The notes below the pieces were generated by a model that saw only the letters and a list, made by a program, of their open reading frames with translations, was not told the origin of the DNA and made no database searches. Below are positions 17,847 to 62,338 of a DNA stretch of 64,000 nucleotides, piece after piece. This stretch comes from Pithys albifrons albifrons (taxonomy: Eukaryota; Chordata; Aves; Passeriformes; Thamnophilidae), in NCBI RefSeq assembly GCF_047495875.1, contig NC_092479.1, positions 9,756,806 to 9,820,805 on the forward strand, in the 5' to 3' direction. A program made the position numbers and the translations under genes. The first letter of the stretch is position 1, and the number at the start of each line of letters is the position of its first letter.

Positions 17847-17904
17847 TTTGAAGTCTGCTATCTTTCCCCTGGGGAAAGAGCTGGATGGTGCCACATGCAG
17901 GTCC
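17847..17904. repeat. Degenerate edge half-monomer at right end of array A
   Basis: After the ordinary CACCTGAGA of the last monomer the sequence becomes strongly diverged but still alignable to the monomer: TTTGAAGTCTGC against GCCAAAGGCTGC, then CTTTCCCCTGGGG against CTTTTCCCTGGG, AGAGCTGGATGG against AAAGCTCGACGG, and CCACATGCAGGTCC against CCACGTGCAGGTCC. I judge this 58-bp piece about three-quarters identical to consensus, whereas interior monomers are nearly identical. Decay at the edge is expected where unequal exchange no longer homogenises copies. The 45-bp repeat starts immediately after it. Confidence 0.85.
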
Positions 17905-18214
17905 TTCGGGGACCTCTGGTGCCCGAGCTGTCGCCTCTTGGGAACCCCCATTGGAGACCCCTTGTGCCTGAAATGTCGTCCCTCTGCAACCCCCCTTGGG
18001 GACTCCCTGTTCCCTAAATATCGTCCCTTGGCAATCCCCCTTTGGGACCCCCGATGCAGAATATGTCGTCCCTTGGGCACCCCCCAGTGCCCAAAATGTC
18101 GTGCCTCGACAACTCCCGCGTCGGGACTCCCTAGGTGCCCAAAATGTCGATTGTCTCGGGAATCCCACTTTGGGCACACACGATGCCCGAAATGTCGTCC
18201 CTCGGGAATACCCC

Positions 18215-18540
18215 TTGGGGACCCCCGGCACTGGAGGAGCCGCCCCTTGGCCAGCCCCATCTTGGGGACCCCGTCCCCGAGGAGCAGCCCCTCGGAAAGC
18301 CCCCACTTGGGGAACCCTGGCGATCGAGGCGCCGCCCCTCGTCCAATCCCTCTTTGGGGACCCCCGGCGCCCGAGCTGCCGCCCCTCGGCAAGCCCCTCT
18401 TGGGGAGACCCGGCGCCCGAGGCACCGCCCCTTTTCCAGCCCCCCCCTTGGGGACCCCGGGCGCCCCAGGCGCCGCCCCTCGGGCAGCCCCCTCTTGGGG
18501 ACCCCCGGCGTCAGAGGTGTCGCCCCTCGGCAACCATCCT
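18215..18540. repeat. CpG-rich subfamily of the 45-bp unit (block I, left cluster)
   Basis: Here the TGTCGTCCCTCGG core is replaced by GCCGCCCCTCGG and the unit junction reads GGCGCCCGAG, raising the CpG count per unit well above that of the core class. Units are less regular in length. The same class returns at 19125-19560, so the homogenised class in the centre of the block is flanked by the divergent GC-rich class on both sides. Confidence 0.8.
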
Positions 18541-18555
18541 TTTGGGACTCCTGGT

Positions 18556-19005
18556 TCCCGAGGTGTCGTCCCTCAGCAACCCCCCTTGGGGACCCCCGGT
18601 GCCCAAAGTGTCGTCCCTCGGCAACCCCCCTTGGGGACCCCCGGTGCCCAAAGTGTCGTCCCTCGGAAACCCCCCTTGGGGACCCCCGGTGCCCAAAGTG
18701 TCGTCCCTCGGAAACCCCCCTTGCGGACCCCCGGTGCCCAAAGTGTCGTCCCTCGGAAACCCCCCTTGGGGACCCCCGGTGCCCAAAGTGTCGTCCCTCG
18801 GAAACCCCCCTTGGGGACCCCCGGTGCCCGAAATGTCGTCCGTCGGACAACCCCCTTGGGGACCCCCGGTGCCCAAAATGTCGTCCGTCGGGAATCCCCC
18901 TTGGGGACCCCCAGTTCCCGAAATGTCGTCCCTCGGCAACCCCCCTTGGGGACCCCCGGTGCCCGAAATGTCGTCCCTCAGCAACCCCCCTTGGGGACCC
19001 CTGAC
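18556..19005. repeat. Homogenised core of block I: ten exact 45-bp units
   Basis: Ten successive units have no length change. Five of them (18601-18825) are almost identical, differing at single sites such as GGCAACC/GGAAACC and TTGGGG/TTGCGG. Units from 18826 carry AAATGTCG in place of AAAGTGTCG-type junctions, and some have CCGTCGG. The near-identity in the centre and divergence outward repeats on a small scale the edge-decay pattern of the 189-bp arrays. Confidence 0.88.
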
Positions 19006-19124
19006 GCAGAAAATGTCGTCCCTTGGCCCTCCCGCAGTGCCCAAAATGTCGTCCCTCGGCAACTCCCCCGTCGGGACCCCCTAGGTGCCTCAAATGTCGA
19101 TTCTCTCGGGAACACCCCTTAGGG

Positions 19125-19560
19125 ACCCCCGGCGCCCGAGGGGCCGACCCTCGGCAAGTCCCTACTTGGGGAACCCCGACGCCCCAGCTGCCGCCCCTCG
19201 GCAAGACCCCCTTGTGGAGCCCCGGCGCCCGAGGCACCGCCCCTTTGCCAGCCGCCCCTTGAGGACCTCGGGCGGCCGAGGCACCGCCCCTGGGCCAGCC
19301 CCCTCTTGGGAATCCCCGGCGCTTGAGGGGCCGCCCCTCGGCAAGCCCCGCCTTGGGGACGTCCGGCGCCCGAGGGCCGCCCCTCGGCCAGCCCCCCTTG
19401 GGGACGCCAGCGCATGAGGAGCCGCCCCTCGCCCAGCCCCTTTTTCTTGACCCTCCGGCGCCAGAGGGGCCGCCCCTCGCCCAGCTCCCACTTGGGGACC
19501 CCCGGCTCCCGAGACAACGCCCCTCGGCGACACACCCTTGGGGACACCCGGCGCCAGAGG
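19125..19560. repeat. CpG-rich subfamily of the 45-bp unit (block I, right cluster)
   Basis: About nine to ten irregular units have GCCGCCCCTCGGC-type cores and GGCGCCCGAGG junctions, ending in a TGTCGCCC unit at 19561 that directly abuts the first monomer of array B. Some units have lost or gained bases relative to 45 (for example around 19380 and 19440), so unit register is not kept here. Confidence 0.75.
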
Positions 19561-19580
19561 TGTCGCCCTTCGCAACCCCA

Positions 19581-19632
19581 GCTTTTCCCTGGGCACAAAG
19601 CTCGACAGTGCCTGCCACGTCCAGGTCTGGGA
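19581..19632. repeat. Degenerate edge monomer at left end of array B
   Basis: The first monomer starts at its CTTTTCCCTGGG element and carries a cluster of private changes: GGGCACAAAG, GACAGTGCCTGCC and CACGTCCAGGTCTGGG, the last destroying the CACGTG palindrome. From about 19633 on, the copy matches the consensus. The changes per base are several times those of interior monomers, again a boundary effect. Confidence 0.8.
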
Positions 19633-20390
19633 AAGTGCCATTTTTCAGCCCAGAATTCCGGACGGACGAAGATTGCTGCCAGGAAAAAAGGGCCAGGACA
19701 GAAAGCGATTGCTCCTTTTCTAGGGTCAATAGGGCCCCATCATTGGCACCTGAGAGCCAAAGGCTGCCGCCTTTTCCCTGGGCGCAAAGCTCGACGGCGC
19801 GGGCCACGTTCAGGTCCGGGAAAGTGCCATTTTTCAGCCCAGAATTCCAGATGGACGAAGATTGCTGCCAGGGAAAAAGTGCCAGGACAGAAAGCGATTG
19901 TTCCTTTTCTAGGGTCAATAGGGCCCCATCATTGGCACCTGAGAGCCAAAGGCTGCCGCCTTTTCCCTGGGCGCAAAGCTCGATGGCGCGGGCCACGTGC
20001 AGGTCCGGGAAAGTGCCATTTTTCAGCCCAGAATTCCGGACGGACGAAGATTGCTGCCAGGAAAAAAGGGCCAGGACAGAAAGCGATTGCTCCTTTTCTA
20101 GGGTCAATAGGGCCCCATCATTGGCACCTGAGAGCCAAAGGCTGCCGCCTTTTCCCTGGGCGCAAAGCTCGACGGCGCGGGCCACGTTCAGGTCCGGGAA
20201 AGTGCCATTTTTCAGCCCAGAATTCCAGATGGACGAAGATTCCTGCCAGGGAAAAAGTGCCAGGACAGAAAGCGATTGTTCCTTTTCTAGGGTCAATAGG
20301 GCCCCATCATTGGCACCTGAGAGCCAAAGGCTGCCGCCTTTTCCCTGGGCGCAAAGCTCGACGGCGCGGGCCACGTGCAGGTCCGGGAAA
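19633..20390. repeat. Dimeric (378-bp) repeat near left edge of array B
   Basis: Two variants recur exactly 378 bp (2 x 189) apart: CACGTTCAGG (about 19806 and 20184), which breaks the E-box, and AATTCCAGATGG followed by CAGGGAAAAAGTGCC and TGTTCC (about 19843 and 20221). The same compound variant, slightly changed (CACAATTCC, GGGAAAAGGTGCC), reappears alone near 10183 and 56129, which identifies a distinct monomer subfamily. Confidence 0.78.
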
Positions 20391-20650
20391 GTGCCATTTT
20401 TCAGCCCAGAATTCCGGACGGACGAAGATTCCTGCCAGGAAAAAAGGGCCAGGACAGAAAGCGATTGCTCCTTTTCTAGGGTCAATAGGGCCCCATCATT
20501 GGCACCTGAGAGCCAAAGGCTGCCGCCTTTTCCCTGGGCGCAAAGCTCGACGGCGCGGGCCACGTGCAGGTCCGGGAAAGTGCCATTTTTCAGCCCAGAA
20601 TTCCGGACGGACGAAGATTGCTGCCAGGAAAAAAGGGCCAGGACAGAAAG

Positions 20651-22099
20651 CCAATGCTCCTTTTCTAGGGTCAATAGGGCCCCATCATTGGCACCTGAGA
20701 GCCAAAGGCTGCCGCCTTTTCCCTGGGCGCAAAGCTCGACGGCGCGGGCCACGTGCAGGTCCGGGAAAGTGCCATTTTTCAGCCCAGAATTCCGGACGGA
20801 TGAAGATTGCTGCCAGGAAAAAAGGGCCAGGACAGAAAGCGATTGCTCCTTTTCTAGGGTCAATAGGGCCCCATCATTGGCACCTGAGAGCCAAAGGCTG
20901 CCGCCTTTTCCCTGGGCGCAAAGCTCGACGGCGCGGGCCACGTGCAGGTCCGGGAAAGTGCCATTTTTCAGCCCAGAATTCCGGACGGACGAAGATTGCT
21001 GCCAGGAAAAGAGTGCCAGGACAGAAAGCGATTGCTCCTTTTCTAGGGTCAATAGGGCCCCATCATTGGCACCTGAGAGCCAAAGGCTGCCGCCTTTTCC
21101 CTGGGCGCAAAGCTCGACGGCGCGGGCCACGTGCAGGTCCGGGAAAGTGCCATTTTTCAGCCCAGAATTCCGGACGGACGAAGATTGCTGCCAGGAAAAA
21201 AGGGCCAGGACAGAAAGCGATTGCTCCTTTTCTAGGGTCAATAGGGCCCCATCATTGGCACCTGAGAGCCAAAGGCTGCCGCCTTTTCCCTGGGCGCAAA
21301 GCTCGACGGCGCAGGCCACGTGCAGGTCCGGGAAAGTGCCATTTTTCAGCCCAGAATTCCGGACGGACGAAGATTGCTGCCAGGAAAAAAGGGCCAGGAC
21401 AGAAAGCGATTGCTCCTTTTCTAGGGTCAATAGGGCCCCATCATTGGCACCTGAGAGCCAAAGGCTGCCGCCTTTTCCCTGGGCGCAAAGCTCGACGGCG
21501 CGGGCCACGTGCAGGTCCGGGAAAGTGCCATTTTTCAGCCCAGAATTCCAGACGGACGAAGATTGCTGCCAGGAAAAAAGGGCCAGGACAGAAAGCGATT
21601 GCTCCTTTTCTAGGGTCAATAGGGCCCCATCATTGGCACCTGAGAGCCAAAGGCTGCCGCCTTTTCCCTGGGCGCAAAGCTCGACGGCGCGGGCCACGTG
21701 CAGGTCCGGGAAAGTGCCATTTTTCAGCCCAGAATTCCGGACGGACGAAGATTGCTGCCAGGAAAAAAGGGCCAGGACAGAAAGCGATTGCTCCTTTTCT
21801 AGGGTCAATAGGGCCCCATCATTGGCACCCGAGAGCCAAAGGCTGCCGCCTTTTCCCTGGGCGCAAAGCTCGACGGCGCGGGCCACGTGCAGGTCCGGGA
21901 AAGTGCCATTTTTCAGCCCAGAATTCCGGACGGACGAAGATTGCTGCCAGGAAAAAAGGGCCAGGACAGAAAGCCAATGCTCCTTTTCTAGGGTCAATAG
22001 GGCCCCATCATTGGCACCTGAGAGCCAAAGGCTGCCGCCTTTTCCCTGGGCGCAAAGCTCGACGGCGCGGGCCACGTGCAGGTCCGGGAAAGTGCCATT
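20651..22099. repeat. Seven-monomer (1323-bp) repeat in the edge zone of array B
   Basis: The variant AAGCCAATGC, not seen elsewhere in the window, occurs at 20651 and 21974, exactly seven monomers apart. The monomers between them are mainly of the GATTGCTGCC class with single private changes. The evidence is one shared rare variant plus spacing, so the unit boundaries are approximate. Confidence 0.55.
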
Positions 22100-24890
22100 T
22101 TTCAGCCCAGAATTCTGGACGGACGAAGATTGCTGCCAGGAAAAAAGGGCCAGGACAGAAAGCGATTGCTCCTTTTCTAGGGTCAATAGGGCCCCATCAT
22201 TGGCACCTGAGAGCCAAAGGCTGCCGCCTTTTCCCTGGGCGCAAAGCTCGACGGCGCGGGCCACGTGCAGGTCCGGGAAAGTGCCATTTTTCAGCCCAGA
22301 ATTCCGGACGGACGAAGATTGCTGCCAGGAAAAAAGGGCCAGGACTGAAAGCGATTGCTCCTTTTCTAGGGTCAATAGGGCCCCATCATTGGCACCTGAG
22401 AGCCAAAGGCTGCCGCCTTTTCCCTGGGCGCAAAGCTCGACGGCGCGTGCCACGTGCAGGTCCGGGAAAGTGCCATTTTTCAGCCCAGAATTCCGGACGG
22501 ACGAAGATTGCTGCCAGGAAAAAAGAGCCAGGACAGAAAGCGATTGCTCCTTTTCTAGGGTCAATAGGGCCCCATCATTGGCACCTGAGAGCCAAAGGCT
22601 GCCGCCTTTTCCCTGGGTGCAAAGCTCGACGGCGCGGGCCACGTGCAGGTCCGGGAAAGTGCCATTTTTCAGCCCAGAATTCCGGACGGACGAAGATTCC
22701 TGCCAGGAAAAGAGGGCCAGGACAGAAAGCGATTGCTCCTTTTCTAGGGTCAATAGGGCCCCATCATTGGCACCTGAGAGCCAAAGGCTGCCGCCTTTTC
22801 CCTGGGCGCAAAGCTCGACGGCGCGGGCCACGTGCAGGTCCGGGAAAGTGCCATTTTTCAGCCCAGAATTCCGGACGGACGAAGATTGCTGCCAGGAAAA
22901 AAGGGCCAGGACAGAAAGCCATTGCTCCTTTTCTAGGGTCAATAGGGCCCCATCATTGGCACCTGAGAGCCAAAGGCTGCCGCCTTTTCCCTGGGCGCAA
23001 AGCTCGACGGCGCGGGCCACGTGCAGGTCCGGGAAAGTGCCATTTTTCAGCCCAGAATTCCGGACGGACGAAGATTCCTGCCAGGAAAAGAGGGCCAGGA
23101 CAGAAAGCGATTGCTCCTTTTCTAGGGTCAATAGGGCCCCATCATTGGCACCTGAGAGCCAAAGGCTGCCGCCTTTTCCCTGGGCGCAAAGCTCGACGGC
23201 GCGGGCCACGTGCAGGTCCGGGAAAGTGCCATTTTTCAGCCCAGAATTCCGGACGGACGAAGATTGCTGCCAGGAAAAAAGGGCCAGGACAGAAAGCCAT
23301 TGCTCCTTTTCTAGGGTCAATAGGGCCCCATCATTGGCACCTGAGAGCCAAAGGCTGCCGCCTTTTCCCTGGGCGCAAAGCTCGACGGCGCGGGCCACGT
23401 GCAGGTCCGGGAAAGTGCCATTTTTCAGCCCAGAATTCCGGACGGACGAAGATTCCTGCCAGGAAAAAAGGGCCAGGACAGAAAGCGATTGCTCCTTTTC
23501 TAGGGTCAATAGGGCCCCATCATTGGCACCTGAGAGCCAAAGGCTGCCGCCTTTTCCCTGGGCGCAAAGCTCGACGGCGCGGGCCACGTGCAGGTCCGGG
23601 AAAGTGCCATTTTTCAGCCCAGAATTCCGGACGGACGAAGATTGCTGCCAGGAAAAAAGGGCCAGGACAGAAAGCGATTGCTCCTTTTCTAGGGTCAATA
23701 GGGCCCCATCATTGGCACCTGAGAGCCAAAGGCTGCCGCCTTTTCCCTGGGCGCAAAGCTCGACGGCGCGGGCCACGTGCAGGTCCGGGAAAGTGCCATT
23801 TTTCAGCCCAGAATCCCGGACGGACGAAGATTCCTGCCAGGAAAAAACGACCAGGACAGAAAGCGATTGCTCCTTTTCTAGGGTCAATAGGGCCCCATCA
23901 TTGGCACCTGAGAGCCAAAGGCTGCCGCCTTTTCCCTGGGCGCAAAGCTCGACGGCGCGGGCCACGTGCAGGTCCGGGAAAGTGCCATTTTTCAGCCCAG
24001 AATTCCGGACGGACGAAGATTCCTGCCAGGAAAAAAGGGCCAGGACAGAAAGCGATTGCTCCTTTTCTAGGGTCAATAGGGCCCCATCATTGGCACCTGA
24101 GAGCCAAAGGCTGCCGCCTTTTCCCTGGGCGCAAAGCTCGACGGCGCGGGCCACGTGCAGGTCCGGGAAAGTGCCATTTTTCGGCCCAGAATTCCGGACG
24201 GACGAAGATTGCTGCCAGGAAAAAAGGGCCAGGACAGAAAGCGATTGCTCCTTTTCTAGGGTCAATAGGGCCCCATCATTGGCACCTGAGAGCCAAAGGC
24301 TGCCGCCGTTTCCCTGGGTGCAAAGCTCGACGACGCGGGCCACGTGCAGGTCCGGGAAAGTGCCATTTTTCAGCCCAGAAGTCCGGACGGACGAAGATTG
24401 CTGCCAGGAAAAAAGGGCCAGGACAGAAAGCGATTGCTCCTTTTCTAGGGTCAATAGGGCCCCATCATTGGCACCTGAGAGCCAAAGGCTGCCGCCTTTT
24501 CCCTGGGCGCAAAGCTCGACGGCGCGGGCCACGTGCAGGTCTGGGAAAGTGCCATTTTTCAGCCCAGAATTCCGGACGGACGAAGATTGCTGCCAGGAAA
24601 AAAGGGCCAGGACAGAAAGCGATTGCTCCTTTTCTAGGGTCAATAGGGCCCCATCATTGGCACCTGAGAGCCAAAGGCTGCCGCCTTTTCCCTGGGCGCA
24701 AAGCTCGACGGCGCGGGCCACGTGCAGGTCCGGGAAAGTGTCATTTTTCAGCCCAGAATTCCGGATGGACGAAGATTGCTGCCAGGAAAAAAGGGCCAGG
24801 ACAGAAAGCGATTGCTCCTTTTCTAGGGTCAATAGGGCCCCATCATTGGCACCTGAGAGCCAAAGGCTGCCGCCTTTTCCCTGGGCGTAA
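22100..24890. repeat. Partial 26-monomer higher-order unit (right part)
   Basis: Variants match the first full unit at an offset of 4914 bp: AATTCTGG at about 22112 and 27026, GACTGAAAG near 22340, GCGCGTGCC near 22444 and 27358, GGGTGCAAAG near 22617, AAAAAACGACC near 23843, GTTTCCCTGGGTG at 24308, AGAAGTCCGG near 24377, GTGTCATTTTTC plus CCGGATGG near 24740-24765, and the closing GGCGTAAAG at 24884. The left limit is where the order of variants stops matching. Confidence 0.82.
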
Positions 24891-27800
24891 AGCTCGACGG
24901 CGCGGGCCACGTGCAGGTCCGGGAAAGTGCCATTTTTCAGCCCAGAATTCCGGACGGACGAAGATTGCTGCCAGGAAAAAAGAGCCAGGACAGAATGCCA
25001 TTGCTCCTTTTCTAGGGTCAATAGGGCCCCATCATTGGCACCTGAGAGCCAAAGGCTGCCGCCTTTTCCCTGGGCGCAAAGCTCGACGGCGCGGGCCACG
25101 TGCAGGTCCGGGAAAGTGCCATTTTTCAGCCCAGAATTCCGGACGGACGAAGATTGCTGGCAGGAAAAAAGGGCCAGGACAGAAAGCGATTGCTCCTTTT
25201 CTAGGGTCAATAGGGCCCCATCATTGGCACCTGAGAGCCAAAGGCTGCCGCCTTTTCCCTGGGCGCAAAGCTCGACGGCGCGGGCCACGTGCAGGTCCGG
25301 GAAAGTGCCATTTTTCGGCCCAGAATTCCGGACGGACGAAGATTCCTGCCAGGAAAAAAGGGCCAGGACAGAAAGCGATTGCTCCTTTTCCAGAGTCAAT
25401 AGGGCCCCATCATTGGCACCTGAGAGCCAAAGGCTGCCGCCTTTTCCCTGGGCGCAAAGCTCGACGGCGCGGGCCACGTGCAGGTCCGGGAAAGTGCCAT
25501 TTTTCGGCCCAGAATTCCGGACGGACGAAGATTCCTGCCAGGAAAAGAGGGCCAGGACAGAAAGCGATTGCTCCTTTTCTAGGGTCAATAGGGCCCCATC
25601 ATTGGCACCTGAGAGCCAAAGGCTGCCGCCTTTTCCCTGGGCGCAAAGCTCGACGGCGCGGGCCACGTGCAGGTCCGGGAAAGTGCCATTTTTCAGCCCA
25701 GAATTCCGGACGGACGAAGATTCCTGCCAGGAAAAAAGGGCCAGGACAGAAAGCGATTGCTCCTTTTCTAGGGTCAATAGGGCCCCATCATTGGCACCTG
25801 AGAGCCAAAGGCTGCCGCCTTTTCCCTGGGCGCAAAGCTCGACGGCGCGGGCCACGTGCAGGTCCGGGAAAGTGCCATTTTTCAGCCCAGAATTCCGGAC
25901 GGACGAAGATTGCTGCCAGGAAAAAAGGGCCAGGACAGAAAGCCATTGCTCCTTTTCTAGGGTCAATAGGGCCCCATCATTGGCACCTGAGAGCCAAAGG
26001 CTGCCGCCTTTTCCCTGGGCGCAAAGCTCGACGGCGCGGGCCACGTGCAGGTCCGGGAAAGTGCCATTTTTCAGCCCAGAATCCCGGACGGACGAAGATT
26101 CCTGCCAGGAAAAAAGGGCCAGGACAGAAAGCGATTGCTCCTTTTCTAGGGTCAATAGGGCCCCATCATTGGCACCTGAGAGCCAAAGGCTGCCGCCTTT
26201 TCCCTGGGCGCAAAGCTCGACGGCGCGGGCCACGTGCAGGTCCGGGAAAGTGCCATTTTTCAGCCCAGAATTCCGGACGGACGAAGATTCCTGCCAGGAA
26301 AAGAGTGCCAGGACAGAAAGAGATTGCTCCTTTTCTAGGGTCAATAGGGCCCCATCATTGGCACCTGAGAGCCAAAGGCTGCCGCCTTTTCCCTGGGCGC
26401 AAAGCTCGACGGCGCGGGCCACGTGCAGGTCCGGGAAAGTGCCATTTTTCAGCCCAGAATTCCGGACGGACGAAGATTGCTGCCAGGAAAAAAGAGCCAG
26501 GACAGAATGCCATTGCTCCTTTTCTAGGGTCAATAGGGCCCCATCATTGGCACCTGAGAGCCAAAGGCTGCCGCCTTTTCCCTGGGCGCAAAGCTCGACG
26601 GCGCGGGCCACGTGCAGGTCCGGGAAAGTGCCATTTTTCAGCCCAGAATTCCGGACGGACGAAGATTGCTGCCAGGAAAAAAGGGCCAGGACAGAAAGCG
26701 ATTGCTCCTTTTCTAGGGTCAATAGGGCCCCATCATTGGCACCTGAGAGCCAAAGGCTGCCGCCTTTTCCCTGGGCGCAAAGCTCGACGGCGCGGGCCAC
26801 GTGCAGGTCCGGGAAAGTGCCATTTTTCAGCCCAGAATTCCGGACGGACGAAGATTCCTGCCAGGAAAAGAGAGCCAGGACAGAAAGCGATTGCTCCTTT
26901 TCTAGAGTCAATAGGGCCCCATCATTGGCACCTGAGAGCCAAAGGCTGCCGCCTTTTCCCTGGGCGCAAAGCTCGACGGCGCGGGCCACGTGCAGGTCCG
27001 GGAAAGTGCCATTTTTCAGCCCAGAATTCTGGACGGACGAAGATTGCTGCCAGGAAAAAAGGGCCAGGACAGAAAGCGATTGCTCCTTTTCTAGGGTCAA
27101 TAGGGCCCCATCATTGGCACCTGAGAGCCAAAGGCTGCCGCCTTTTCCCTGGGCGCAAAGCTCGACGGCGCGGGCCACGTGCAGGTCCGGGAAAGTGCCA
27201 TTTTTCAGCCCAGAATTCCGGACGGACGAAGATTGCTGCCAGGAAAAAAGGGCCAGGACTGAAAGCGATTGCTCCTTTTCTAGGGTCAATAGGGCCCCAT
27301 CATTGGCACCTGAGAGCCAAAGGCTGCCGCCTTTTCCCTGGGCGCAAAGCTCGACGGCGCGTGCCACGTGCAGGTCCGGGAAAGTGCCATTTTTCAGCCC
27401 AGAATTCCGGACGGACGAAGATTGCTGCCAGGAAAAAAGAGCCAGGACAGAAAGCGATTGCTCCTTTTCTAGGGTCAATAGGGCCCCATCATTGGCACCT
27501 GAGAGCCAAAGGCTGCCGCCTTTTCCCTGGGTGCAAAGCTCGACGGCGCGGGCCACGTGCAGGTCCGGGAAAGTGCCATTTTTCAGCCCAGAATTCCGGA
27601 CGGACGAAGATTCCTGCCAGGAAAAGAGGGCCAGGACAGAAAGCGATTGCTCCTTTTCTAGGGTCAATAGGGCCCCATCATTGGCACCTGAGAGCCAAAG
27701 GCTGCCGCCTTTTCCCTGGGCGCAAAGCTCGACGGCGCGGGCCACGTGCAGGTCCGGGAAAGTGCCATTTTTCAGCCCAGAATTCCGGACGGACGAAGAT

Positions 27801-50226: not shown

Positions 50227-52967
50227 CGCAGGCCACGTGCAGGTCCGGGAAAGTGCCATTTTTCAGCCCAGAATTCCGGACGGACGAAGATTCCTGCCAG
50301 GAAAAAAGGGCCAGGACAGAAAGCGATTGCTCCTTTTCTAGGGTCAATAGGGCCCCATCATTGGCACCTGAGAGCCAAAGGCTGCCGCCTTTTCCCTGGG
50401 CGCAAAGCTCGACGGCGCGGGCCACGTGCAGGTCCGGGAAAGTGCCATTTTTCAGCCCAGAATTCCGGACGGACGAAGATTGCTGCCAGGAAAAGAGAGC
50501 CAGGACAGAAAGCGATTGCTCCTTTTCTAGGGTCAATAGGGCCCCATCATTGGCACCTGAGAGCCAAAGGCTGCCGCCTTTTCCCTGGGCGCAAAGCTCG
50601 ACGGCGCGGGCCACGTGCAGGTCCGGGAAAGTGCCATTTTTCAGCCCAGAAGTCCGGACGGACCAAGATTGCTGCCAGGAAAAAAGGGCCAGGACAGAAA
50701 GCGATTGCTCCTTTTCTAGGGTCAATAGGGCCCCATCATTGGCACCTGAGAGCCAAAGGCTGCCGCCTTTTCCCTGGGCGCAAAGCTCGACGGCGCGGGC
50801 CACGTGCAGGTCCGGGAAAGTGCCATTTTTCGGCCCAGAATTCCGGACGGACGAAGATTGCTGCCAGGAAAAAAGGGCCAGGACAGAAAGCCATTGCTCC
50901 TTTTCTAGGGTCAATAGGGCCCCATCATTGGCACCTGAGAGCCAAAGGCTGCCGCCTTTTCCCTGGGCGCAAAGCTCGACGGCGCGGGCCACGTGCAGGT
51001 CCGGGAAAGTGCCATTTTTCAGCCCAGAATTCCGGACGGACGAAGATTCCTGCCAGGAAAAAAGGGCCAGGACAGAAAGCGATTGCTCCTTTTCTAGGGT
51101 CAATAGGGCCCCATCATTGGCACCTGAGAGCCAAAGGCTGCCGCCTTTTCCCTGGGCGCAAAGCTCGACGGCGCGGGCCACGTGCAGGTCCGGGAAAGTG
51201 TCATTTTTCAGCCTAGAATTCCGGACGGACGAAGATTGCTGCGAGGAAAAAAGGGCCAGGACAGAAAGCGATTGCTCCTTTTCTAGGGTCAATAGGGCCC
51301 CATCATTGGCACCTGAGAGCCAAAGGCTGCCGCCTTTTCCCTGGGCGCAAAGCTCGACGGCGCGGGCCACGTGCAGGTCCGGGAAAGTGCCATTTTTCAG
51401 CCCAGAATTCCGGACGGACGAAGATTGCTGCCAGGAAAAAAGGGCCAGGACAGAAAGCGATTGCTCCTTTTCTAGGGTCAATAGGGCCCCATCATTGGCA
51501 CCTGAGAGCCAAAGGCTGCCGCCTTTTCCCTGGGCGCAAAGCTCGACGGCGCGGGCCACGTGCAGGTCCGGGAAAGTGCCATTTTTCAGCCCAGAATTCC
51601 GGACGGACGAAGATTCCTGCCAGGAAAAAAGGGCCAGGACAGAAAGCGATTGCTCCTTTTCTAGGGTCAATAGGGCCCCATCATTGGCACCTGAGAGCCA
51701 AAGGCTGCCGCCTTTTCCCTGGGCGCAAAGCTCGACGGCGCGGGCCACGTGCAGGTCCGGGAAAGTGCCATTTTTCAGCCCAGAATTCCGGACGGACGAA
51801 GATTGCTGCCAGGAAAAAAGGGCCAGGACAGAAAGCGATTGCTCCTTTTCTAGGGTCAATAGGGCCCCATCATTGGCACCTGAGAGCCAAAGGCTGCCGC
51901 CTTTTCCCTGGGCGCAAAGCTCGACGGCGCGGGCCACGTGCAGGTCCGGGAAAGTGCCATTTTTCAGCCCAGAATTCCGGACGGACGAAGATTGCTGCCA
52001 GGAAAAAAGGGCCAGGACAGAAAGCGATTGCTCCTTTTCTAGGGTCAATAGGGCCCCATCATTGGCACCTGAGAGCCAAAGGCTGCCGCCTTTTCCCTGG
52101 GCGCAAAGCTCGACGGCGCGGGCCACGTGCAGGTCCGGGAAAGTGCCATTTTTCGGCCCAGAATTCCGGACGGACGAAGATTGCTGCCAGGAAAAAGGGG
52201 CCAGGACAGAAAGCGATTGCTCCTTTTCTAGGGTCAATAGGGCCCCATCATTGGCACCTGAGAGCCAAAGGCTGCCGCCTTTTCCCTGGGCGCAAAGCTC
52301 GACGGCGCGGGCCACGTGCAGGTCCGGGAAAGTGCCATTTTTCAGCCTAGAATTCCGGACGGACGAAGATTCCTGCCAGGAAAAAAGGGCCAGGACAGAA
52401 AGCGATTGCTCCTTTTCTAGGGTCAATAGGGCCCCATCATTGGCACCTGAGAGCCAAAGGCTGCCGCCTTTTCCCTGGGCGCAAAGCTCGACGGCGCGGG
52501 CCACGTGCAGATCCGGGAAAGTGTCATTTTTCAGCCTAGAATTCCGGACGGACGAAGATTGCTGCCAGGAAAAAAGGGCCAGGACAGAAAGCGATTGCTC
52601 CTTTTCTAGGGTCAATAGGGCCCCATCATTGGCACCTGAGAGCCAAAGGCTGCCGCCTTTTCCCTGGGCGCAAAGCTCGACGGCGCGGGCCACATGCAGG
52701 TCCGGGAAAGTGCCATTTTTCAGCCCAGAATTCCGGACGGACGAAGATTGCTGCCAGGAAAAGAGAGCCAGGACAGAAAGCGATTGCTCCTTTTCTAGGG
52801 TCAATAGGGCCCCATCATTGGCACCTGAGAGCCAAAGGCTGCCGCCTTTTCCCTGGGCGCAAAGGTCGACGGCGCGGGCCACGTGCAGGTCCGGGAAAGT
52901 GCCATTTTTCGGCCCAGAATTCCGGACGGACGAAGATTGCTGCCAGGAAAAAAGGGCCAGGACAGAA
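50227..52967. repeat. 24-monomer higher-order unit, copy 2 (partial)
   Basis: It repeats the left about 2.7 kb of copy 1 variant for variant, ending near 52967, where copy 1 reads AAGCCATTG and this copy AAGCGATTG. The next monomers then stop matching (copy 1 has GTTTCCCTGGGTG, here the ordinary CTTTTCCCTGGGCG). One monomer near 50650 carries AGAAGTCC with GGACCAAG, which copy 1 lacks at that place, pointing to a small conversion from a neighbouring unit. Confidence 0.85.
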
Positions 52968-55186
52968 AGCGATTGCTCCTTTTCTAGGGTCAATAGGGCC
53001 CCATCATTGGCACCTGAGAGCCAAAGGCTGCCGCCTTTTCCCTGGGCGCAAAGCTCGATGGCGCGGGCCACGTGCAGGTCCGGGAAAGTGCCATTTTTCA
53101 GCCCAGAATTCCGGACGGACGAAGATTCCTGCCAGGAAAAAAGGGCCAGGACAGAAAGCGATTGCTCCTTTTCTAAGGTCAATAGGGCCCCATCATTGGC
53201 ACCTGAGAGCCAAAGGCTGCCGCCTTTTCCGTGGGCGCAAAGCTCGACGGCGCGGGCCACGTGCAGGTCCGGGAAAGTGCCATTTTTCAGCCCAGAATTC
53301 CGGACGGACGAAGATTGCTGCCAGGAAAAAAGGGCCAGGACTGAAAGCCATTGCTCCTTTTCTAGGGTCAATAGGGCCCCATCATTGGCACCTGAGAGCC
53401 AAAGGCTGCCGCCTTTTCCCTGGGCGCAAAGCTCGACGGCGCGGGCCACGTGCAGGTCCGGGAAAGTGCCATTTTTCAGCCCAGAATTCCGGACGGACGA
53501 AGATTCCTGCCAGGAAAAAAGGGCCAGGACAGAAAGCGATTGCTCCTTTTCTAGGGTCAATAGGGCCCCATCATTGGCACCTGAGAGCCAAAGGCTGCCG
53601 CCTTTTCCCTGGGCGCAAAGCTCGACGGCGCGGGCCACGTGCAGGTCCGGGAAAGTGCCATTTTTCAGCCCAGAATTCCGGACGGACGAAGATTGCTGCC
53701 AGGAAAAGAGAGCCAGGACAGAAAGCGATTGCTCCTTTTCTAGGGTCAATAGGGCCCCATCATTGGCACCTGAGAGCCAAAGGCTGCCGCCTTTTCCCTG
53801 GGCGCAAAGCTCGACGGCGCGGGCCACGTGCAGGTCCGGGAAAGTGCCATTTTTCAGCCCAGAATTCCGGACGGACGAAGATTGCTGCCAGGAAAAAAGG
53901 GCCAGGACAGAAAGCCATTGCTCCTTTTCTAGGGTCAATAGGGCCCCATCATTGGCACCTGAGAGCCAAAGGCTGCCGCCTTTTCCCTGGGCGCAAAGCT
54001 CGACGGCGCGGGCCACGTGCAGGTCCGGGAAAGTGCCATTTTTCAGCCCAGAATTCCGGACGGACGAAGATTCCTGCCAGGAAAAAAGGGCCAGGATAGA
54101 AAGCGATTGCTCCTTTTCTAAGGTCAATAGGGCCCCATCATTGGCACCTGAGAGCCAAAGGCTGCCGCCTTTTCCCTGGGCGCAAAGCTCGACGGCGCGG
54201 GCCACGTGCAGGTCCGGGAAAGTGCCATTTTTCAGCCCAGAATTCCGGACGGACGAAGATTGCTGCCAGGAAAAAAGGGCCAGGACAGAAAGCGATTGCT
54301 CCTTTTCTAGGGTCAATAGGGCCCCATCATTGGCACCCGAGAGCCAAAGGCTGCCGCCTTTTCCCTGGGCGCAAAGCTCGACGGCGCGGGCCACGTGCAG
54401 GTCCGGGAAAGTGCCATTTTTCAGCCCAGAATTCCGGACGGACGAAGATTGCTGCCAGGAAAAAAGGGCCAGGACAGAAAGCCATTGCTCCTTTTCTAGG
54501 GTCAATAGGGCCCCATCATTGGCACCTGAGAGCCAAAGGCTGCCGCCTTTTCCCTGGGCGCAAAGCTCGACGGCGCGGGCCACGTGCAGGTCCGGGAAAG
54601 TGCCATTTTTCAGCCCAGAATTCCGGACGGACGAAGATTGCTGCCAGGAAAAAAGGGCCAGGACAGAAAGCGATTGCTCCTTTTCTAGGGTCAATAGGGC
54701 CCCATCATTGGCACCTGAGAGCCAAAGGCTGCCGCCTTTTCCCTGGGCGCAAAGCTCGACGGCGCGGGCCACGTGCAGGTCCGGGAAAGTGCCATTTTTC
54801 AGCCCAGAATTCCGGACGGACGAAGATTGCTGCCAGGAAAAAAGGGCCAGGACAGAAAGCCATTGCTCCTTTTCTAGGGTCAATAGGGCCCCATCATTGG
54901 CACCTGAGAGCCAAAGGCTGCCGCCTTTTCCCTGGGCGCAAAGCTCGACGGCGCGGGCCACGTGCAGGTCCGGGAAAGTGCCATTTTTCAGCCCAGAATT
55001 CCGGACGGACGAAGATTGCTGCCAGGAAAAAAGGGCCAGGACAGAAAGCCATTGCTCCTTTTCTAGGGTCAATAGGGCCCCATCATTGGCACCTGAGAGC
55101 CAAAGGCTGCCGCCTTTTCCCTGGGCGCAAAGCTCGACGGCGCGGGCCACGTGCAGGTCCGGGAAAGTGCCATTTTTCAGCCCAGA
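52968..55186. repeat. Transition zone of array B
   Basis: About twelve ordinary monomers lie here with no marker order shared with the 24- or 26-monomer units. Scattered variants are CTCGATGG (about 53055), CTAAGG (about 53174 and 54120), TTTTCCGTGGG (about 53230) and GGATAGAAAG (about 54094). The CTAAGG at 54120 may already belong to the segment shared with array A (8174). I see nothing else in it. Confidence 0.7.
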
Positions 55187-58100
55187 ATTCCGGGTGGACG
55201 AAGATTGCTGCCAGGAAAAAAGGGCCAGGACAGAAAGCCATTGCTCCTTTTCTAGGGTCAATAGGGCCCCATCATTGGCACCTGAGAGCCAAAGGCTGCC
55301 GCCTTTTCCCTGGGCGCAAAGCTCGACGGCGCGGGCCACGTGCAGGTCCGGGAAAGTGCCATTTTTCAGCCCAGAATTCCGGACGGACGAAGATTGCTGC
55401 CAGGAAAAAAGGGCCAGGACAGAAAGCCATTGCTCCTTTTCTAGGGTCAATAGGGCCCCATCATTGGCACCTGAGAGCCAAAGGCTGCCGCCTTTTCCCT
55501 GGGCGCAAAGCTCGACGGCGCGGGCCACGTGCAGGTCCGGGAAAGTGCCATTTTTCAGCCCAGAATTCCGGACGGACGAAGATTGCTGCCAGGAGAAAAG
55601 GGCCAGGACTGAAAGCCATTGCTCCTTTTCTAGGGTCAATAGGGCCCCATCATTGGCACCTGAGAGCCAAAGGCTGCCGCCTTTTCCCTGGGCGCAAAGC
55701 TCGACGGCGCGGGCCACGTGCAGGTCCGGGAAAGTGCCATTTTTCAGCCCAGAATTCCGGACGGACGAAGATTGCTGCCAGGAAAAAAGGGCCAGGACAG
55801 AAAGCCATTGCTCCTTTTCTAGGGTCAATAGGGCCCCATCATTGGCACCTGAGAGCCAAAGGCTGCCGCCTTTTCCCTGGGCGCAAAGCTCGACGGCGCG
55901 GGCCACGTGCAGGTCCGGGAAAGTGCCATTTTTCAGCCCAGAATTCCGGACGGACGAAGATTGCTGCCAGGAAAAAAGGGCCAGGACAGAAAGCGATTGC
56001 TCCTTTTCTAGGGTCAATAGGGCCCCATCATTGGCACCCGAGAGCCAAAGGCTGCCGCCTTTTCCCTGGGCGCAAAGCTCGACGGCGCGTGCCACGTGCA
56101 GGTCCGGGAAAGTGCCATTTTTCAGCCCACAATTCCAGATGGACGAAGATTCCTGCCAGGGAAAAGGTGCCAGGACAGAAAGCGATTGTTCCTTTTCTAG
56201 GGTTAATGGGGCCCCATCATTGGCACCTGAGAGCCAAAGGCTGCCGCCTTTTCCCTGGGCGCAAAGCTCGACGGCGCGGGCCACGTGCAGGTCCGGGAAA
56301 GTGCCATTTTTCAGCCCAGAATTCCGGACGGACGAAGATTGCTGCCAGGAAAAAAGGGCCAGGACGGAAAGCCATTGCTCCTTTTCTAGGGTCAATAGGG
56401 CCCCATCATTGGCACCTGAGAGCCAAAGGCTGCCGCCTTTTCCCTGGGCGCAAAGCTCGACGGCGCGGGCCACGTGCAGGTCCGGGAAAGTGCCATTTTT
56501 CAGCCCAGAATTCCGGACGGACGAAGATTGCTGCCAGGAAAAAAGGGCCAGGACAGAAAGCGATTGCTCCTTTTCTAGGGTCAATAGGGCCCCATCATTG
56601 GCACCTGAGAGCCAAAGGCTGCCGCCTTTTCCCTGGGCGCAAAGCTCGACGGCGCGTGCCACGTGCAGGTCCGGGAAAGTGCCATTTTTCAGCCCAGAAT
56701 TCCGGACGGACGAAGATTGCTGCCAGGAAAAAAGGGCCAGGACAGAAAGCGATTGCTCCTTTTCTAGGGTCAATAGGGCCCCATCATTGGCACCTGAGAG
56801 CCAAAGGCTGCCGCCTTTTCCCTGGGCGCAAAGCTCGACGGCGCGGGCCACGTGCAGGTCCGGGAAAGTGACATTTTTCAGCCCAGAATCCCGGACGGAC
56901 GAAGATTGCTGCCAGGAAAAAAGGGCCAGGACAGAAAGCGATTGCTCCTTTTCTAGGGTCAATAGGGCCCCATCATTGGCACCTGAGAGCCAAAGGCTGC
57001 CGCCTTTTCCCTGGGCGCAAAGCTCGACGGCGCGGGCCACGTGCAGGTCCGGGAAAGTGCCATTTTTCAGCCCAGAATTCCGGACGGACGAAGATTGCTG
57101 CCAGGAAAAAAGGGCCAGGACTGAAAGCGATTGCTCCTTTTCTAGGGTCAATAGGGCCCCATCATTGGCACTTGAGAGCCAAAGGCTGCCGCCTTTTCCC
57201 TGGGCGCAAAGCTCGACGGCGCGGGCCACGTGCAGGTCCGGGAAAGTGCCATTTTTCAGCCCAGAATTCCGGACGGACTAAGATTGCTGCCAGGAAAAAA
57301 GAGCCAGGACAGAATGCCATTGCTCCTTTTCTAGGGTCAATAGGGCCCCATCATTGGCACCTGAGAGCCAAAGGCTGCCGCCTTTTCCCTGGGCGCAAAG
57401 CTCGATGGCGCGGGCCACGTGCAGGTCCGGGAAAGTGCCATTTTTCAGCCCAGAATCCCGGACGGACGAAGATTGCTGCCAGGAAAAAAGGGTCAGGACA
57501 GAAAGCGATTGCTCCTTTTCTAGGGTCAATAGGGCCCCATCATTGGCACCTGAGAGCCAAAGGCTGCCGCCTTTTCCCTGGGCGCAAAGCTCGACGGCGC
57601 GGGCCACGTGCAGGTCCGGGAAAGTGCCATTTTTCAGCCCAGAATTCCGGACGGACGAAGATTCCTGCCAGGAAAAAAGGGCCAGGACAGAAAGCGATTG
57701 CTCCTTTTCTAGGGTCAATAGGGCCCCATCATTGGCACCTGAGAGCCAAAGGCTGCCGCCTTTTCCCTGGGCGCAAAGCTCGACGGCGCGGGCCACGTGC
57801 AGGTCCGGGAAAGTGCCATTTTTCAGCCCAGAATTCCGGACGGACGAAGATTCCTGCCAGGAAAAAAGGGCCAGGACAGAAAGCGATTGCTCCTTTTCTA
57901 GGGTCAATAGGGCCCCATCATTGGCACCTGAGAGCCAAAGGCTGCCGCCTTTTCCCTGGGCGCAAAGCTCGACGGCGCGGGCCACGTGCAGGTCCGGGAA
58001 AGTGCCATTTTTCAGCCCAGAATTCCGGACGGACGAAGATTCCTGCCAGGAAAAGAGGGCCAGGACAGAAAGCGATTGCTCCTTTTCTAGGGTCAATAGG

Positions 58101-61100
58101 GCCCCATCATTGGCACCTGAGAGCCAAAGGCTGCCGCCTTTTCCCTGGGCGCAAAGCTCGACGGCGCGGGCCACGTGCAGGTCCGGGAAAGTGCCATTTT
58201 TCAGCCCAGAATTCCGGACAGACGAAGATTCCTGGAAGAAAAAGAGGGACAGGACTGAAAGCGATTGCTCCTTTTCTAGGGTCAATAGGGCCCCATCATT
58301 GGCACCTGAGAGCCAAAGGCTGCCGCCTTTTCCCTGGGCGCAAAGCTCGACGGCGCGGGCCACGTGCAGGTCCGGGAAAGTGCCATTTTTCAGCCCAGAA
58401 TTCCGGACGGACGAAGATTGCTGCCAGGAAAAAAGGGCCAGGACTGAAAGCCATTGCTCCTTTTCTAGGGTCAATAGGGCCCCATCATTGGCACCTGAGA
58501 GCCAAAGGCTGCCGCCTTTTCCCTGGGCGCAAAGCTCGACGGCGCGGGCCACGTGCAGGTCCGGGAAAGTGCCATTTTTCAGCCCAGAATTCCGGACGGA
58601 CGAAGATTGCTGCCAGGAAAAAAGGGCCAGGACAGAAAGCCATTGCTCCTTTTCTAGGGTCAATAGGGCCCCATCATTGGCACCTGAGAGCCAAAGGCTG
58701 CCGCCTTTTCCCTGGGCGCAAAGCTCGACGGCGCGGGCCACGTGCAGGTCCGGGAAAGTGCCATTTTTCAGCCCAGAATTCCGGACGGACGAAGATTGCT
58801 GCCAGGAAAAGAGAGCCAGGACAGAAAGCGATTGCTCCTTTTCTAGGGTCAATAGGGCCCCATCATTGGCACCTGAGAGCCAAAGGCTGCCGCCTTTTCC
58901 CTGGGCGCAAAGCTCGACGGCGCGGGCCACGTGCAGGTCCGGGAAAGTGCCATTTTTCAGCCCAGAATCCCGGACGGACGAAGATTGCTGCCAGGAAAAA
59001 AGGGCCAGGACAGAAAGCCATTGCTCCTTTTCTAGGGTCAATAGGGCCCCATCATTGGCACCTGAGAGCCAAAGGCTGCCGCCTTTTCCCTGGGCGCAAA
59101 GCTCGACGGCGCGGGCCACGTGCAGGTCCGGGAAAGTGCCATTTTTCAGCCCAGAATTCCGGACGGACGAAGATTCCTGCCAGGAAAAAAGGGCCAGGAT
59201 AGAAAGCGATTGCTCCTTTTCTAAGGTCAATAGGGCCCCATCATTGGCACCTGAGAGCCAAAGGCTGCCGCCTTTTCCCTGGGCGCAAAGCTCGACGGCG
59301 CGGGCCACGTGCAGGTCCGGGAAAGTGCCATTTTTCAGCCCAGAATTCCGGACGGACGAAGATTGCTGCCAGGAAAAAAGGGCCAGGACAGAAAGCCATT
59401 GCTCCTTTTCTAGGGTCAATAGGGCCCCATCATTGGCACCTGAGAGCCAAAGGCTGCCGCCTTTTCCCTGGGCGCAAAGCTCGACGGCGCGGGCCACGTG
59501 CAGGTCCGGGAAAGTGCCATTTTTCAGCCCAGAATTCCGGACGGACGAAGATTCCTGCCAGGAAAAAAGGGCCAGGACTGAAAGCGATTGCTCCTTTTCT
59601 AGGGTCAATAGGGCCCCATCATTGGCACCTGAGAGCCAAAGGCTGCCGCCTTTTCCCTGGGCGCAAAGCTCGACGGCGCGGGCCACGTGCAGGTCCGGGA
59701 AAGTGCCATTTTTCAGCCCAGAATTCCGGATGGACGAAGATTGCTGCCAGGAAAAAAGGGCCAGGACAGAAAGCCATTGCTCCTTTTCTAGGGTCAATAG
59801 GGCCCCATCATTGGCACCTGAGAGCCAAAGGCTGCCGCCTTTTCCCTGGGCGCAAAGCTCAACGGCGCGGGCCACGTGCAGGTCCGGGAAAGTGCCATTT
59901 TTCGGCCCAGAATTCCGGACGGACGAAGATTGCTGCCAGGAAAAAAGGGCCAGGACAGAAAGCGATTGCTCCTTTTCTAGGGTCAATAGGGCCCCATCAT
60001 TGGCACCCGAGAGCCAAAGGCTGCCGCCTTTTCCCTGGGCGCAAAGCTCGACAGCGCGGGCCACGTGCAGGTCCGGGAAAGTGCCATTTTTCAGCCCAGA
60101 ATTCCGGACGGACGAAGATTGCTGCCAGGAAAAAAGGGCCAGGACAGAAAGCGATTGCTCCTTTTCTAGGGTCAATAGGGCCCCATCATTGGCACCTGAG
60201 AGCCAAAGGCTGCCGCCTTTTCCCTGGGCGCAAAGCTCGACGGCGCGGGCCACGTGCAGGTCCGGGAAAGTGCCATTTTTCGGCCCAGAATTCCGGACGG
60301 ACGAAGATTGCTGCCAGGAAAAAAGGGCCAGGACAGAAAGCGATTGCTCCTTTTCTAGGGTCAATAGGGCCCCATCATTGGCACCTGAGAGCCAAAGGCT
60401 GCCGCCTTTTCCCTGGGCGCAAAGCTCGACGGCGCGGGCCACGTGCAGGTCCGGGAAAGTGCCATTTTTCGGCCCAGAATTCCGGACGGACGAAGATTCC
60501 TGCCAGGAAAAAAGGGCCAGGACAGAAAGCGATTGCTCCTTTTCTAGGGTCAATAGGGCCCCATCATTGGCACCTGAGAGCCAAAGGCTGCCGCCTTTTC
60601 CCTGGGCGCAAAGCTCGACGGCGCGGGCCACGTGCAGGTCCGGAAAAGTGCCATTTTTCAGCCGAGAATCCCGGACGGACGAAGATTGCTGCCAGGAAAA
60701 AAGGGCCAGGACAGAAAGCGATTGCTCCTTTTCTAGGGTCAATAGGGCCCCATCATTGGCACCTGAGAGCCAAAGGCTGCCGCCTTTTCCCTGGGCGCAA
60801 AGCTCGACGGCGCGGGCCACGTGCAGGTCCGGGAAAGTGCCATTTCTCAGCCCAGAATTCCGGACGGACGAAGATTCCTGCCAGGAAAAAAGGGCCAGGA
60901 CAGAAAGCGATTGCTCCTTTTCTAGGGTCAATAGGGCCCCATCATTGGCACCTGAGAGCCAAAGGCTGCCGCCTTTTCCCTGGGCGCAAAGCTCGACGGC
61001 GCGGGCCACGTGCAGGTCCGGGAAAGTGCCATTTTTCAGCCCAGAATTCCGGACGGACGAAGATTGCTGCCAGGAAAAAAGAGCCAGGACAGAATGCCAT

Positions 61101-62280
61101 TGCTCCTTTTCTAGGGTCAATAGGGCCCCATCATTGGCACCTGAGAGCCAAAGGCTGCCGCCTTTTCCCTGGGCGCAAAGCTCGACGGCGCGGGCCACGT
61201 GCAGGTCCGGGAAAGTGCCATTTTTCAGCCCAGAATTCCGGACGGACGAAGATTGCTGCCAGGAAAAAAGGGCCAGGACAGAAAGCGATTGCTCCTTTTC
61301 TAGGGTCAATAGGGCCCCATCATTGGCACCTGAGAGCCAAAGGCTGCCGCCTTTTCCCTGGGCGCAAAGCTCGACGGCGCGGGCCACGTGCAGGTCCGGG
61401 AAAGTGCCATTTTTCAGCCCAGAATTCCGGACGGACGAAGATTGCTGCCAGGAAAAGAGTGCCAGGACAGAAAGCGATTGCTCCTTTTCTAGGGTCAATA
61501 GGGCCCCATCATTGGCACCTGAGAGCCAAAGGCTGCCGCCTTTTCCCTGGGCACAAAGCTCGACGGCACGGGCCACGTGCAGGTCCGGGAAAGTGCCATT
61601 TTTCAGCCCAGAATTCCGGACGGACGAAGATTCCTGCCAGGAAAAAAGGGCCAGGACAGAAAGCGATTGCTCCTTTTCTAGGGTCAATAGGGCCCCATCA
61701 TTGACACCTGAGAGCCAAAGGCTGCCGCCTTTTCCCTGGGCGCAAAGCTCGACGGCGCGGGCCACGTGCAGGTCCGGGAAAGTGCCATTTTTCAGCCCAG
61801 AATTCCGGACGGACGAAGATTGCTGCCAGGAAAAAAGGGCCAGGACAGAAAGCGATTGCTCCTTTTCTAGGGTCAATAGGGCCCCATCATTGGCACCTGA
61901 GAGCCAAAGGCTGCCGCCTTTTCCCTGGGCGCAAAGCTCGACGGCGCGGGCCACGTGCAGGTCCGGGAAAGTGCCATTTTTCAGCCCAGAATTCCGGACG
62001 GACGAAGATTGCTGCCAGGAAAAAAGGGCCAGGACAGAAAGCGATTGCTCCTTTTCTAGGGTCAATAGGGCCCCATCATTGGCACCTGAGAGGCAAAGGC
62101 TGCCGCCTTTTCCCTGGGCGCAAAGCTCGACGGCGCGGGCCACGTGCAGGTCCGGGAAAGTGCCATTTTTCAGCCCAGAATTCCGGACGGACGAAGATTG
62201 CTGCCAGGAAAAAAGGGCCAGGACAGAAAGCGATTGCTCCTTTTCTAGGGTCAATAGGGCCCCATCATTGGCACCTGAGA
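55187..62280. repeat. Right part of array B, paralogous to right part of array A
   Basis: It shares with 9241-17846 an ordered set of rare variants, including GGGTGGAC, GGAGAAAAGG with GACTGAAAG, CACAATTCCAGATGG, GGCACTTGAG, GACTAAG, CTCGATGG, GGGTCAGG, CCTGGAAGAAAAAG, GTCCGGAAAAG with CAGCCGAG, CATTTCTCAG, GGGCACAAAG with GGCACGGG, and ATTGACACC, and it ends at the identical boundary. It lacks nine monomers present in A (including the 945-bp duplication) and has one extra between about 58968 and 60005 (a GGATAGAAAG/CTAAGG monomer near 59200). Scattered single-base differences also separate the two. Confidence 0.87.
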
Positions 62281-62338
62281 TTTGAAGTCTGCTATCTTTC
62301 CCCTGGGGAAAGAGCTGGATGGTGCCACATGCAGGTCC
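62281..62338. repeat. Degenerate edge half-monomer at right end of array B
   Basis: Base for base the same diverged half-monomer as at 17847-17904, 44434 bp later. Because the decay is shared, it predates the duplication that produced the two boundaries. Confidence 0.87.

What the first reader, a model, noticed from the sequence alone, without database searches (positions are those of the whole stretch)
17847..62280. Candidate 44434-bp macro-repeat: one 45-bp block plus one long 189-bp array
Both array-to-block boundaries are identical, including the decayed half-monomer, and all landmarks in the two 45-bp blocks are offset by exactly 44434 bp. The window thus spans one full period of a possible macrosatellite alternating two unrelated satellites. 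If this pattern continues outward it would be a very large composite unit.
Basis: seen in the sequence. Interest (0 to 1): 0.75.

Follow-up and report, generated by a model that had tools for sequence, protein, structure and literature searches.

The report
Satellite islands inside satellite array
A long satellite array at one end of what is probably a bird chromosome carries near-identical 1.7-kb islands of a second satellite at irregular spacing, so the 44-kb offset in the window is one spacing among several and not a fixed repeat unit.

Summary
In detail: the 45-bp block at 17847 recurs at 62281, with 0 mismatches over the 1,720 bases visible in both copies. The macro-period reading is only partly right. 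The window lies on contig C22 of a 1.144-Gb genome. In 264 kb around it, a head-to-tail 189-bp array holds eight copies of the same 1,735-bp island (one is 1,736), 99.2-100% identical and in one orientation. Their spacings are 38,951, 21,941, 14,572, 53,695, 44,434, 8,335 and 51,612 bp, so there is no 44,434-bp unit. The arrays between islands keep whole-monomer register, and two neighbour pairs sit in 8.3-8.5-kb and 14.6-kb tandem duplications. This fits unequal exchange between 189-bp monomers, with the island as passenger. Islands with both junctions at the same bases occur on C24, C49, C6, C8 and C20; diverged ones on C29 and C25. The array begins near C22:9,556,439 and runs off the contig end; the other end of C22 is telomere. 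An acrocentric centromere is likely but unproven. An ordinary kind of structure, unusually legible.

The parts
1..17846 (+). 189-bp satellite array (right end of array 4 of C22, which continues to the left of the window)
   Evidence: TRF; 94 in-register monomers sliced, mean 1.0% from consensus; no length-variant monomer in array 4
17847..17904 (+). left junction: decayed half-monomer (aligns to monomer positions 1-62)
   Evidence: alignment; junction at the same base in the 18 copies aligned (C29 less decayed)
17905..19581 (+). 45-bp satellite island (whole island 17847-19581 = 1,735 bp, C22 copy 5); right junction at monomer position about 16
   Evidence: TRF; BLAST; junction alignments
19582..62280 (+). 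189-bp array 5 of C22, 225.9 monomers, no length-variant monomer found
21993..31943 (+). tandem pair of a 26-monomer (4,914-bp) higher-order segment: 5,037 bp exact match at shift 4,914; further long exact matches at shifts of 28, 23, 22 and 24 monomers farther right in the same array
   Evidence: exact-match list
62281..64000 (+). second island (C22 copy 6), cut by the window end 15 bases before its right junction

Best explanation
The window is part of a satellite array of about 398 kb or more that ends contig C22, probably the centromeric array of an acrocentric microchromosome. In it a 1.7-kb island of an older 45-bp satellite has been multiplied as a passenger. Monomers of the 189-bp array are 97-99% alike, so sister chromatids or homologues can pair out of step by any whole number of monomers and exchange. 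Each unequal exchange that spans an island duplicates or deletes it with its flanks, which gives islands with identical junctions separated by variable whole numbers of monomers. The 45-bp units inside the island are only about 75% alike, so the island itself seldom misaligns and is copied intact. Shown: register, variable spacing, near-identity of islands, two clear tandem duplications, and islands with the same junctions on other contigs. Inferred: that the process is unequal crossing-over rather than another kind of copying, that low similarity of the 45-bp units is what keeps the island intact, and that the array is centromeric.
For: Eight islands in 264 kb, same orientation, 99.2-100% identical. 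Array lengths 37216, 20206, 12837, 51960, 42699, 6600 and 49876 bp, that is 169-174 mod 189 in 7 of 7; the departures from 174 equal the net length changes of the variant monomers found in arrays 1, 2, 3 and 7. Tandem duplications: shift 8,524/8,336 bp (4,708 and 2,021 bp exact) around islands 6 and 7; shift 14,570-14,572 bp over 12.7 kb around islands 3 and 4. Monomer order is shared beyond the islands: arrays 5/7 align over 72 monomers (score 63.4; four permutations 8.8-10.6), arrays 4/5 over 39 (44.3 against 7.7-10.5). Right edges of C22 copies 2 and 8 carry consensus-type monomer sequence up to about 13 bases from the junction where the other six of copies 1-8 keep a diverged variant, a trace of exchange or conversion ending there. 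Array start near 9556439, contig end inside the array, telomere repeat at base 1.
Against: Around islands 5 and 6 (the pair in the window) near-identity without gaps spans only 5.8 kb of the 44 kb, so that copy either turned over fast or arose by shorter conversion-like copying. Of 9 array pairs compared (of 28 possible among arrays 0-7), three (4/7, 1/4, 1/5) score only slightly above their four permutations. The ninth C22 island (9925587) is closer to the islands taken from C6, C20 and C49 (94.7-95.9%) than to its C22 neighbours (93.5-93.8%), which means transfer between chromosomes or a mis-joined contig end. No CENP-A data.
Confidence: 0.8

Rival explanations
1. True macrosatellite: a fixed unit of one island plus about 226 monomers, repeated in tandem.
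For: Exact 44,434-bp offset in the window. Arrays 5 and 7, to the right of islands 5 and 7, share monomer order over 72 aligned monomers, so one duplication of roughly this size is plausible.
Against: Seven measured spacings from 8.3 to 53.7 kb; array 4 shows almost no shared order with array 7 (score 11.7, four permutations 7.1-11.0).
Confidence: 0.05
2. Assembly artefact: one island repeated by mis-assembly, or the two parental haplotypes stitched in tandem.
For: The contig ends inside the array; island 9 looks foreign to C22; islands 5 and 6 have no difference at all.
Against: Among the eight islands 27 of 28 pairs differ, by 1-14 columns; flanks differ; longest exact repeat 5.9 kb and longest near-identical pair 7.9 kb with 9 mismatches, which long accurate reads would normally span (inference; sequencing method unknown); islands with the same junctions on other contigs.
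Confidence: 0.1
3. The islands spread as a mobile or conversion unit (rolling circle, break-induced replication or gene conversion) rather than by crossing-over between sister arrays.
For: Flanks of islands 5 and 6 return to background within about 1 kb (right) and 3 kb (left) in ungapped comparison; both junctions are at the same monomer positions on several contigs; a 47-bp stretch of the monomer (about 16-62) is present on both sides of the island, as a target duplication would leave.
Against: Islands 3/4 and 6/7 lie in long tandem duplications; the eight C22 islands share one orientation and one register, as exchange in register predicts.
Confidence: 0.2
4. The 45-bp satellite arose from the 189-bp monomer by tandem amplification of positions 16-62, the stretch present on both sides.
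For: The doubled stretch is 47 bp, close to the 45-bp period.
Against: No similarity above chance: 452 of 1000 shuffles score as high for the 45-bp unit, 376-434 of 500 for four monomer or edge pieces.
Confidence: 0.1

Closest known systems
Chicken acrocentric centromeres: 41-bp CNM arrays with higher-order repeats (Huang et al. 2023, PMC9974502; section 8 read in full, passages elsewhere)
   Same: Hundreds of kb of tandem repeat at one end of small chromosomes, higher-order organisation, and a second sequence embedded within the array on several chromosomes.
   Different: Monomer 189 bp, not 41 bp; the embedded sequence is a 1.7-kb 45-bp satellite island with the same junctions on several contigs, not (TTAGGG)n, (GCCTT)n or an ERV; no CENP-A data here.
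APL-HaeIII (190 bp) and AFA-HinfI-L (192 bp) satellites of duck and bean goose (PMC6435179; passages seen)
   Same: Bird centromeric-heterochromatin satellites of nearly the same monomer length.
   Different: Reported G+C 51.6% against 58.2% for the consensus here; their sequences are not in the text seen, so homology is untested.
TmeSat01-189 of the trogon Trogon melanurus (PMC12651973; abstract, Results section and a passage of its Table 2 seen)
   Same: Length 189 bp and G+C 59.8%; first in the table of that genome's satellites (abundance 0.0248).
   Different: Sequence not in the text; listed divergence 11.05 against about 1% from consensus here. Length and G+C alone are a lead, not a test.
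Human macrosatellites D4Z4, DXZ4, NBL2 (passages of PMC8122249)
   Same: Large tandem organisation.
   Different: They have a unit of 1.4-3.3 kb repeated in tandem; no fixed large unit was found here.

Membership tests
Macrosatellite (fixed large tandem unit) | Constant unit length over successive copies | tested here: not met
   Spacings 38951, 21941, 14572, 53695, 44434, 8335, 51612 bp
Satellite array with higher-order organisation | Monomer variants recurring in order at multi-monomer spacing | tested here: met
   5,037-bp exact match at 26 monomers, 3,070 bp at 28 monomers and others in the window; 6 of 9 array pairs clearly above four permutations each
Satellite array with higher-order organisation | A constant higher-order unit length | tested here: not met
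   Shifts of 22, 23, 24, 26 and 28 monomers in one array
Centromeric satellite | CENP-A nucleosomes on the array | not testable with these tools
   No ChIP data held
Centromeric satellite | Large array at a position fitting the primary constriction, shared among chromosomes | tested here: inconclusive
   About 398 kb or more at the end of C22 opposite a telomere repeat (part read, part spot-checked); boundary-query hits on C5, C6, C8, C20, C24, C25, C29, C49 (40 of 2,289 candidates scored); constriction positions unknown
CNM repeat family of birds | 41-bp unit | tested here: not met
   Units are 189 and 45 bp; judged by length only, the CNM sequence was not compared
Protein-coding tandem repeat (189 and 45 are multiples of 3) | Synonymous excess or stop depletion in a frame | tested here: not met
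   92 substitution types; in all six frames the share of simulations with at least as many synonymous changes is 0.39-0.95, and with as few stops 0.32-0.88

The most novel reading that the evidence does not exclude
The 45-bp islands are functional nodes: as in chicken, where kinetochore cores sit at array boundaries or on foreign sequence embedded in CNM arrays, the islands with junctions shared across contigs would be where CENP-A nucleates or is bounded, and selection for them would explain their spread with the junctions kept at the same bases.
Probability: 0.07. Interest if true: 0.65.

Novelty: new member of a known kind. Interest (0 to 1): 0.3.

Why it matters
Because the islands differ from the array and are long, they serve as landmarks inside otherwise uniform satellite DNA. 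Counting monomers between islands in different individuals would directly measure the size and rate of unequal exchange in what is probably a centromere. The same junctions on several contigs also suggest exchange between chromosomes.

Tried and rejected
Coding reading: three frames of the 189-bp consensus are open and there are very long stop-free stretches, but the substitution spectrum shows no selection in any of six frames. Origin of the 45-bp unit from the monomer: no similarity above shuffles. CENP-B-box-like motif TTCGNNNNANNCGGG (recalled): 0 on both strands in the tandem consensus, the island and the edge stretch. Unusual folding of one monomer: z 0.57, 139 of 200 shuffles fold as well. 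Rfam: no match in 15001-25000, the only part searched. Plasmids: no match to 17400-19700. Exact-pattern scans of the GTDB genome contigs and IMG/VR: none. Text searches for satellite letters: 0 papers for five fragments; none for four more (its 2 papers, one on a fish and one on trogons, matched 'Sat..-189' names only). The chicken 41-bp PO41 repeat could not be compared: passages of PMC4301066 seen give no repeat sequence. Other paper searches gave listings only, apart from the papers cited.

Rows dropped: of the 21 island copies compared, three (C25_2840379, C24_4520470, C6_63730777) were left out of the alignment and tree because they aligned in pieces; they were looked at apart. There C25 and C24 near 4.52 Mb have array on both sides of the island, while for C6 near 63.73 Mb the fetched stretch shows only the left side. 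In one search only 40 of 2,289 first-look candidates were scored, so island counts outside the fetched 264 kb are lower bounds. In one search the junction strings found a wrong (upstream) right junction for C29 and C6_63730777; those two lengths were not used.
Full report
Observation. The window holds a 189-bp array (1-17846), 45-bp repeats, a second 189-bp array (19582-62280), and the 45-bp repeats again. At shift 44,434 there are 0 mismatches in the 1,720 visible bases of the block and 15 in the 2,846 bases before it; farther left (275 in 15,000) the difference is that of any two monomers (background 18.4 per kb, sd 4.7, 1,446 in-register pairs). Only the left junction of the second block is in the window.

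The wider map. The genome search placed the window at C22:9756806-9820805 of a 1.144-Gb, 53-contig genome and listed nine full-length boundary copies on C22 (40 of 2,289 candidates scored). I fetched 120 kb to the left and 80 kb to the right and joined them with the window. This 264-kb stretch is one head-to-tail 189-bp array, in one orientation, with eight islands of 1,735 bp (one of 1,736), starting at 9645493, 9684444, 9706385, 9720957, 9774652, 9819086, 9827421 and 9879033. The spacings are 38951, 21941, 14572, 53695, 44434, 8335 and 51612 bp. A fixed macro-period is therefore absent, although the alternation goes on.

Register and duplications. The seven arrays between islands are 169-174 bp mod 189: 196.9, 106.9, 67.9, 274.9, 225.9, 34.9 and 263.9 monomers; the missing fraction is the start of the first monomer, since the right junction enters at about position 16. 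Length-variant monomers occur in arrays 1, 2, 3 and 7 (2, 6, 2 and 4 of them) and none was found in arrays 0, 4, 5 and 6, out of 1,210 monomers sliced, 372 distinct; their net changes account for the departures from 174. Islands 6 and 7 lie in a tandem duplication of 8.3-8.5 kb; islands 3 and 4 in one of 14.57 kb that matches over 12.7 kb; islands 5 and 6, the pair in the window, share 5.8 kb with 19 mismatches. In monomer order, arrays 5 and 7 align over 72 monomers, arrays 4 and 5 over 39, arrays 2 and 3 over 38, arrays 5 and 6 over 24 and arrays 3 and 4 over 18, far above four permutations each. Arrays 1/2 are weaker (12 monomers, 24.8 against at most 9.3), and 4/7, 1/4 and 1/5 are only slightly above their permutations (9 of 28 pairs tested). 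Inside array 5, exact matches of 5,037 and 3,070 bp at 26 and 28 monomers, and others at 22-24, show a loose higher-order pattern of about 4.2-5.3 kb.

The island. It begins with a decayed copy of monomer positions 1-62, continues with 45-bp units that TRF scores at 71-75% matches, and returns to the monomer at about position 16, so that about 47 bp of monomer stand on both sides. Its two ends resemble each other (about 77.4-77.8% over 0.73 kb). Its units have no detectable relation to the monomer. Among C22 copies 1-8 there are 0-14 differing columns; copies 5, 6 and 7 differ by 0 or 1 and copies 3 and 4 by 1, so in these cases neighbours are the closest relatives.

Other contigs. Eighteen of 21 copies compared were aligned: C22 (9), C24 (2), C49 (2), C6 (2), C8, C20 and C29. 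The left junction is at the same base in all 18, with C29 less decayed. The right junction is also shared, though C29 has a gap soon after it. Identities of C22 copies 1-8 to the rest: C24 96.1-96.5%, C6 94.5-95.3%, C20 94.6-94.9%, C49 94.1-94.5%, C8 89.0-89.3%, C29 85.3-85.7%. Junction-to-junction lengths differ from the C22 value of 1,709 by -2 and -1 (C24), +45 and -45 (C49), +90 and +12 (C6), +92 (C8), +315 (C20) and +362 (C22 copy 9), mostly close to multiples of the 45-bp unit (recounted from the distances, whose last column used another reference). C25 has two short islands about 0.82 kb apart with about two monomers between; C24 near 4.52 Mb has one diverged island.

Array edge. C22 begins with (CCCTAA)n and its other end lies inside the array. 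The inner edge lies between a 10-bp CCAGAGACCC minisatellite interspersed with 45-bp stretches and the first 189-bp monomer at 9556439. The last 45-bp stretch there passes into the monomer at the same right junction as the islands. One reading, inferred, is that the islands descend from an old array-edge junction now carried inside the array. From 9556439 to the contig end at 9955621 the array spans about 399 kb. Of this, 264 kb and some 14 kb at the edge were read through; island 9 was read in one 2.6-kb stretch; the rest was seen in ten 1-kb spot checks, all 189-bp array.

Mechanism and limits. Whole-monomer register, shared orientation, near-identical neighbours, tandem duplications and consensus-type right edges (copies 2 and 8) fit unequal exchange in register with the island as passenger. 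That the array is centromeric is inference from size, position, sharing between contigs and the chicken precedent (PMC9974502, section 8 read in full). CpG observed/expected is 0.73 in the array and 0.67 in the island, against 0.08-0.26 in three 1-kb samples from elsewhere on C22 (9.0-9.45 Mb) and 0.23 in the edge minisatellite. Island 9 is closer to the islands taken from C6, C20 and C49 than to its neighbours, though not closer to those from C24, C8 and C29, so the last part of C22 may be mis-joined or may have received DNA from another chromosome.

Noticed in passing
L047 (C22:9556644-9557250): A 607-bp solo-LTR-like insert (TGTCACAG...CTCCAACA) with a 6-bp flanking duplication CCTGGG sits near the first monomer of the array. 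Described only.
   Followed up: partly
L061 (C22:9925287-9927900): Ninth island on C22, longer by about 362 bp and more like islands of C6, C20 and C49 than its own neighbours: interchromosomal transfer or a mis-join.
   Followed up: partly
window 19582-62280: 225 sliced monomers without a length change found, and a period divisible by three with three open frames in the consensus; no sign of coding selection.
   Followed up: yes
L057 (C25:2838400-2841400): Two short islands of about 0.4-0.5 kb separated by about two monomers, a composite of about 0.82 kb that may resemble the ancestral arrangement.
   Followed up: partly
L039 and L047 (C22:9550001-9555723): 10-bp CCAGAGACCC minisatellite with 45-bp stretches scattered in it, next to the array.
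   Followed up: no
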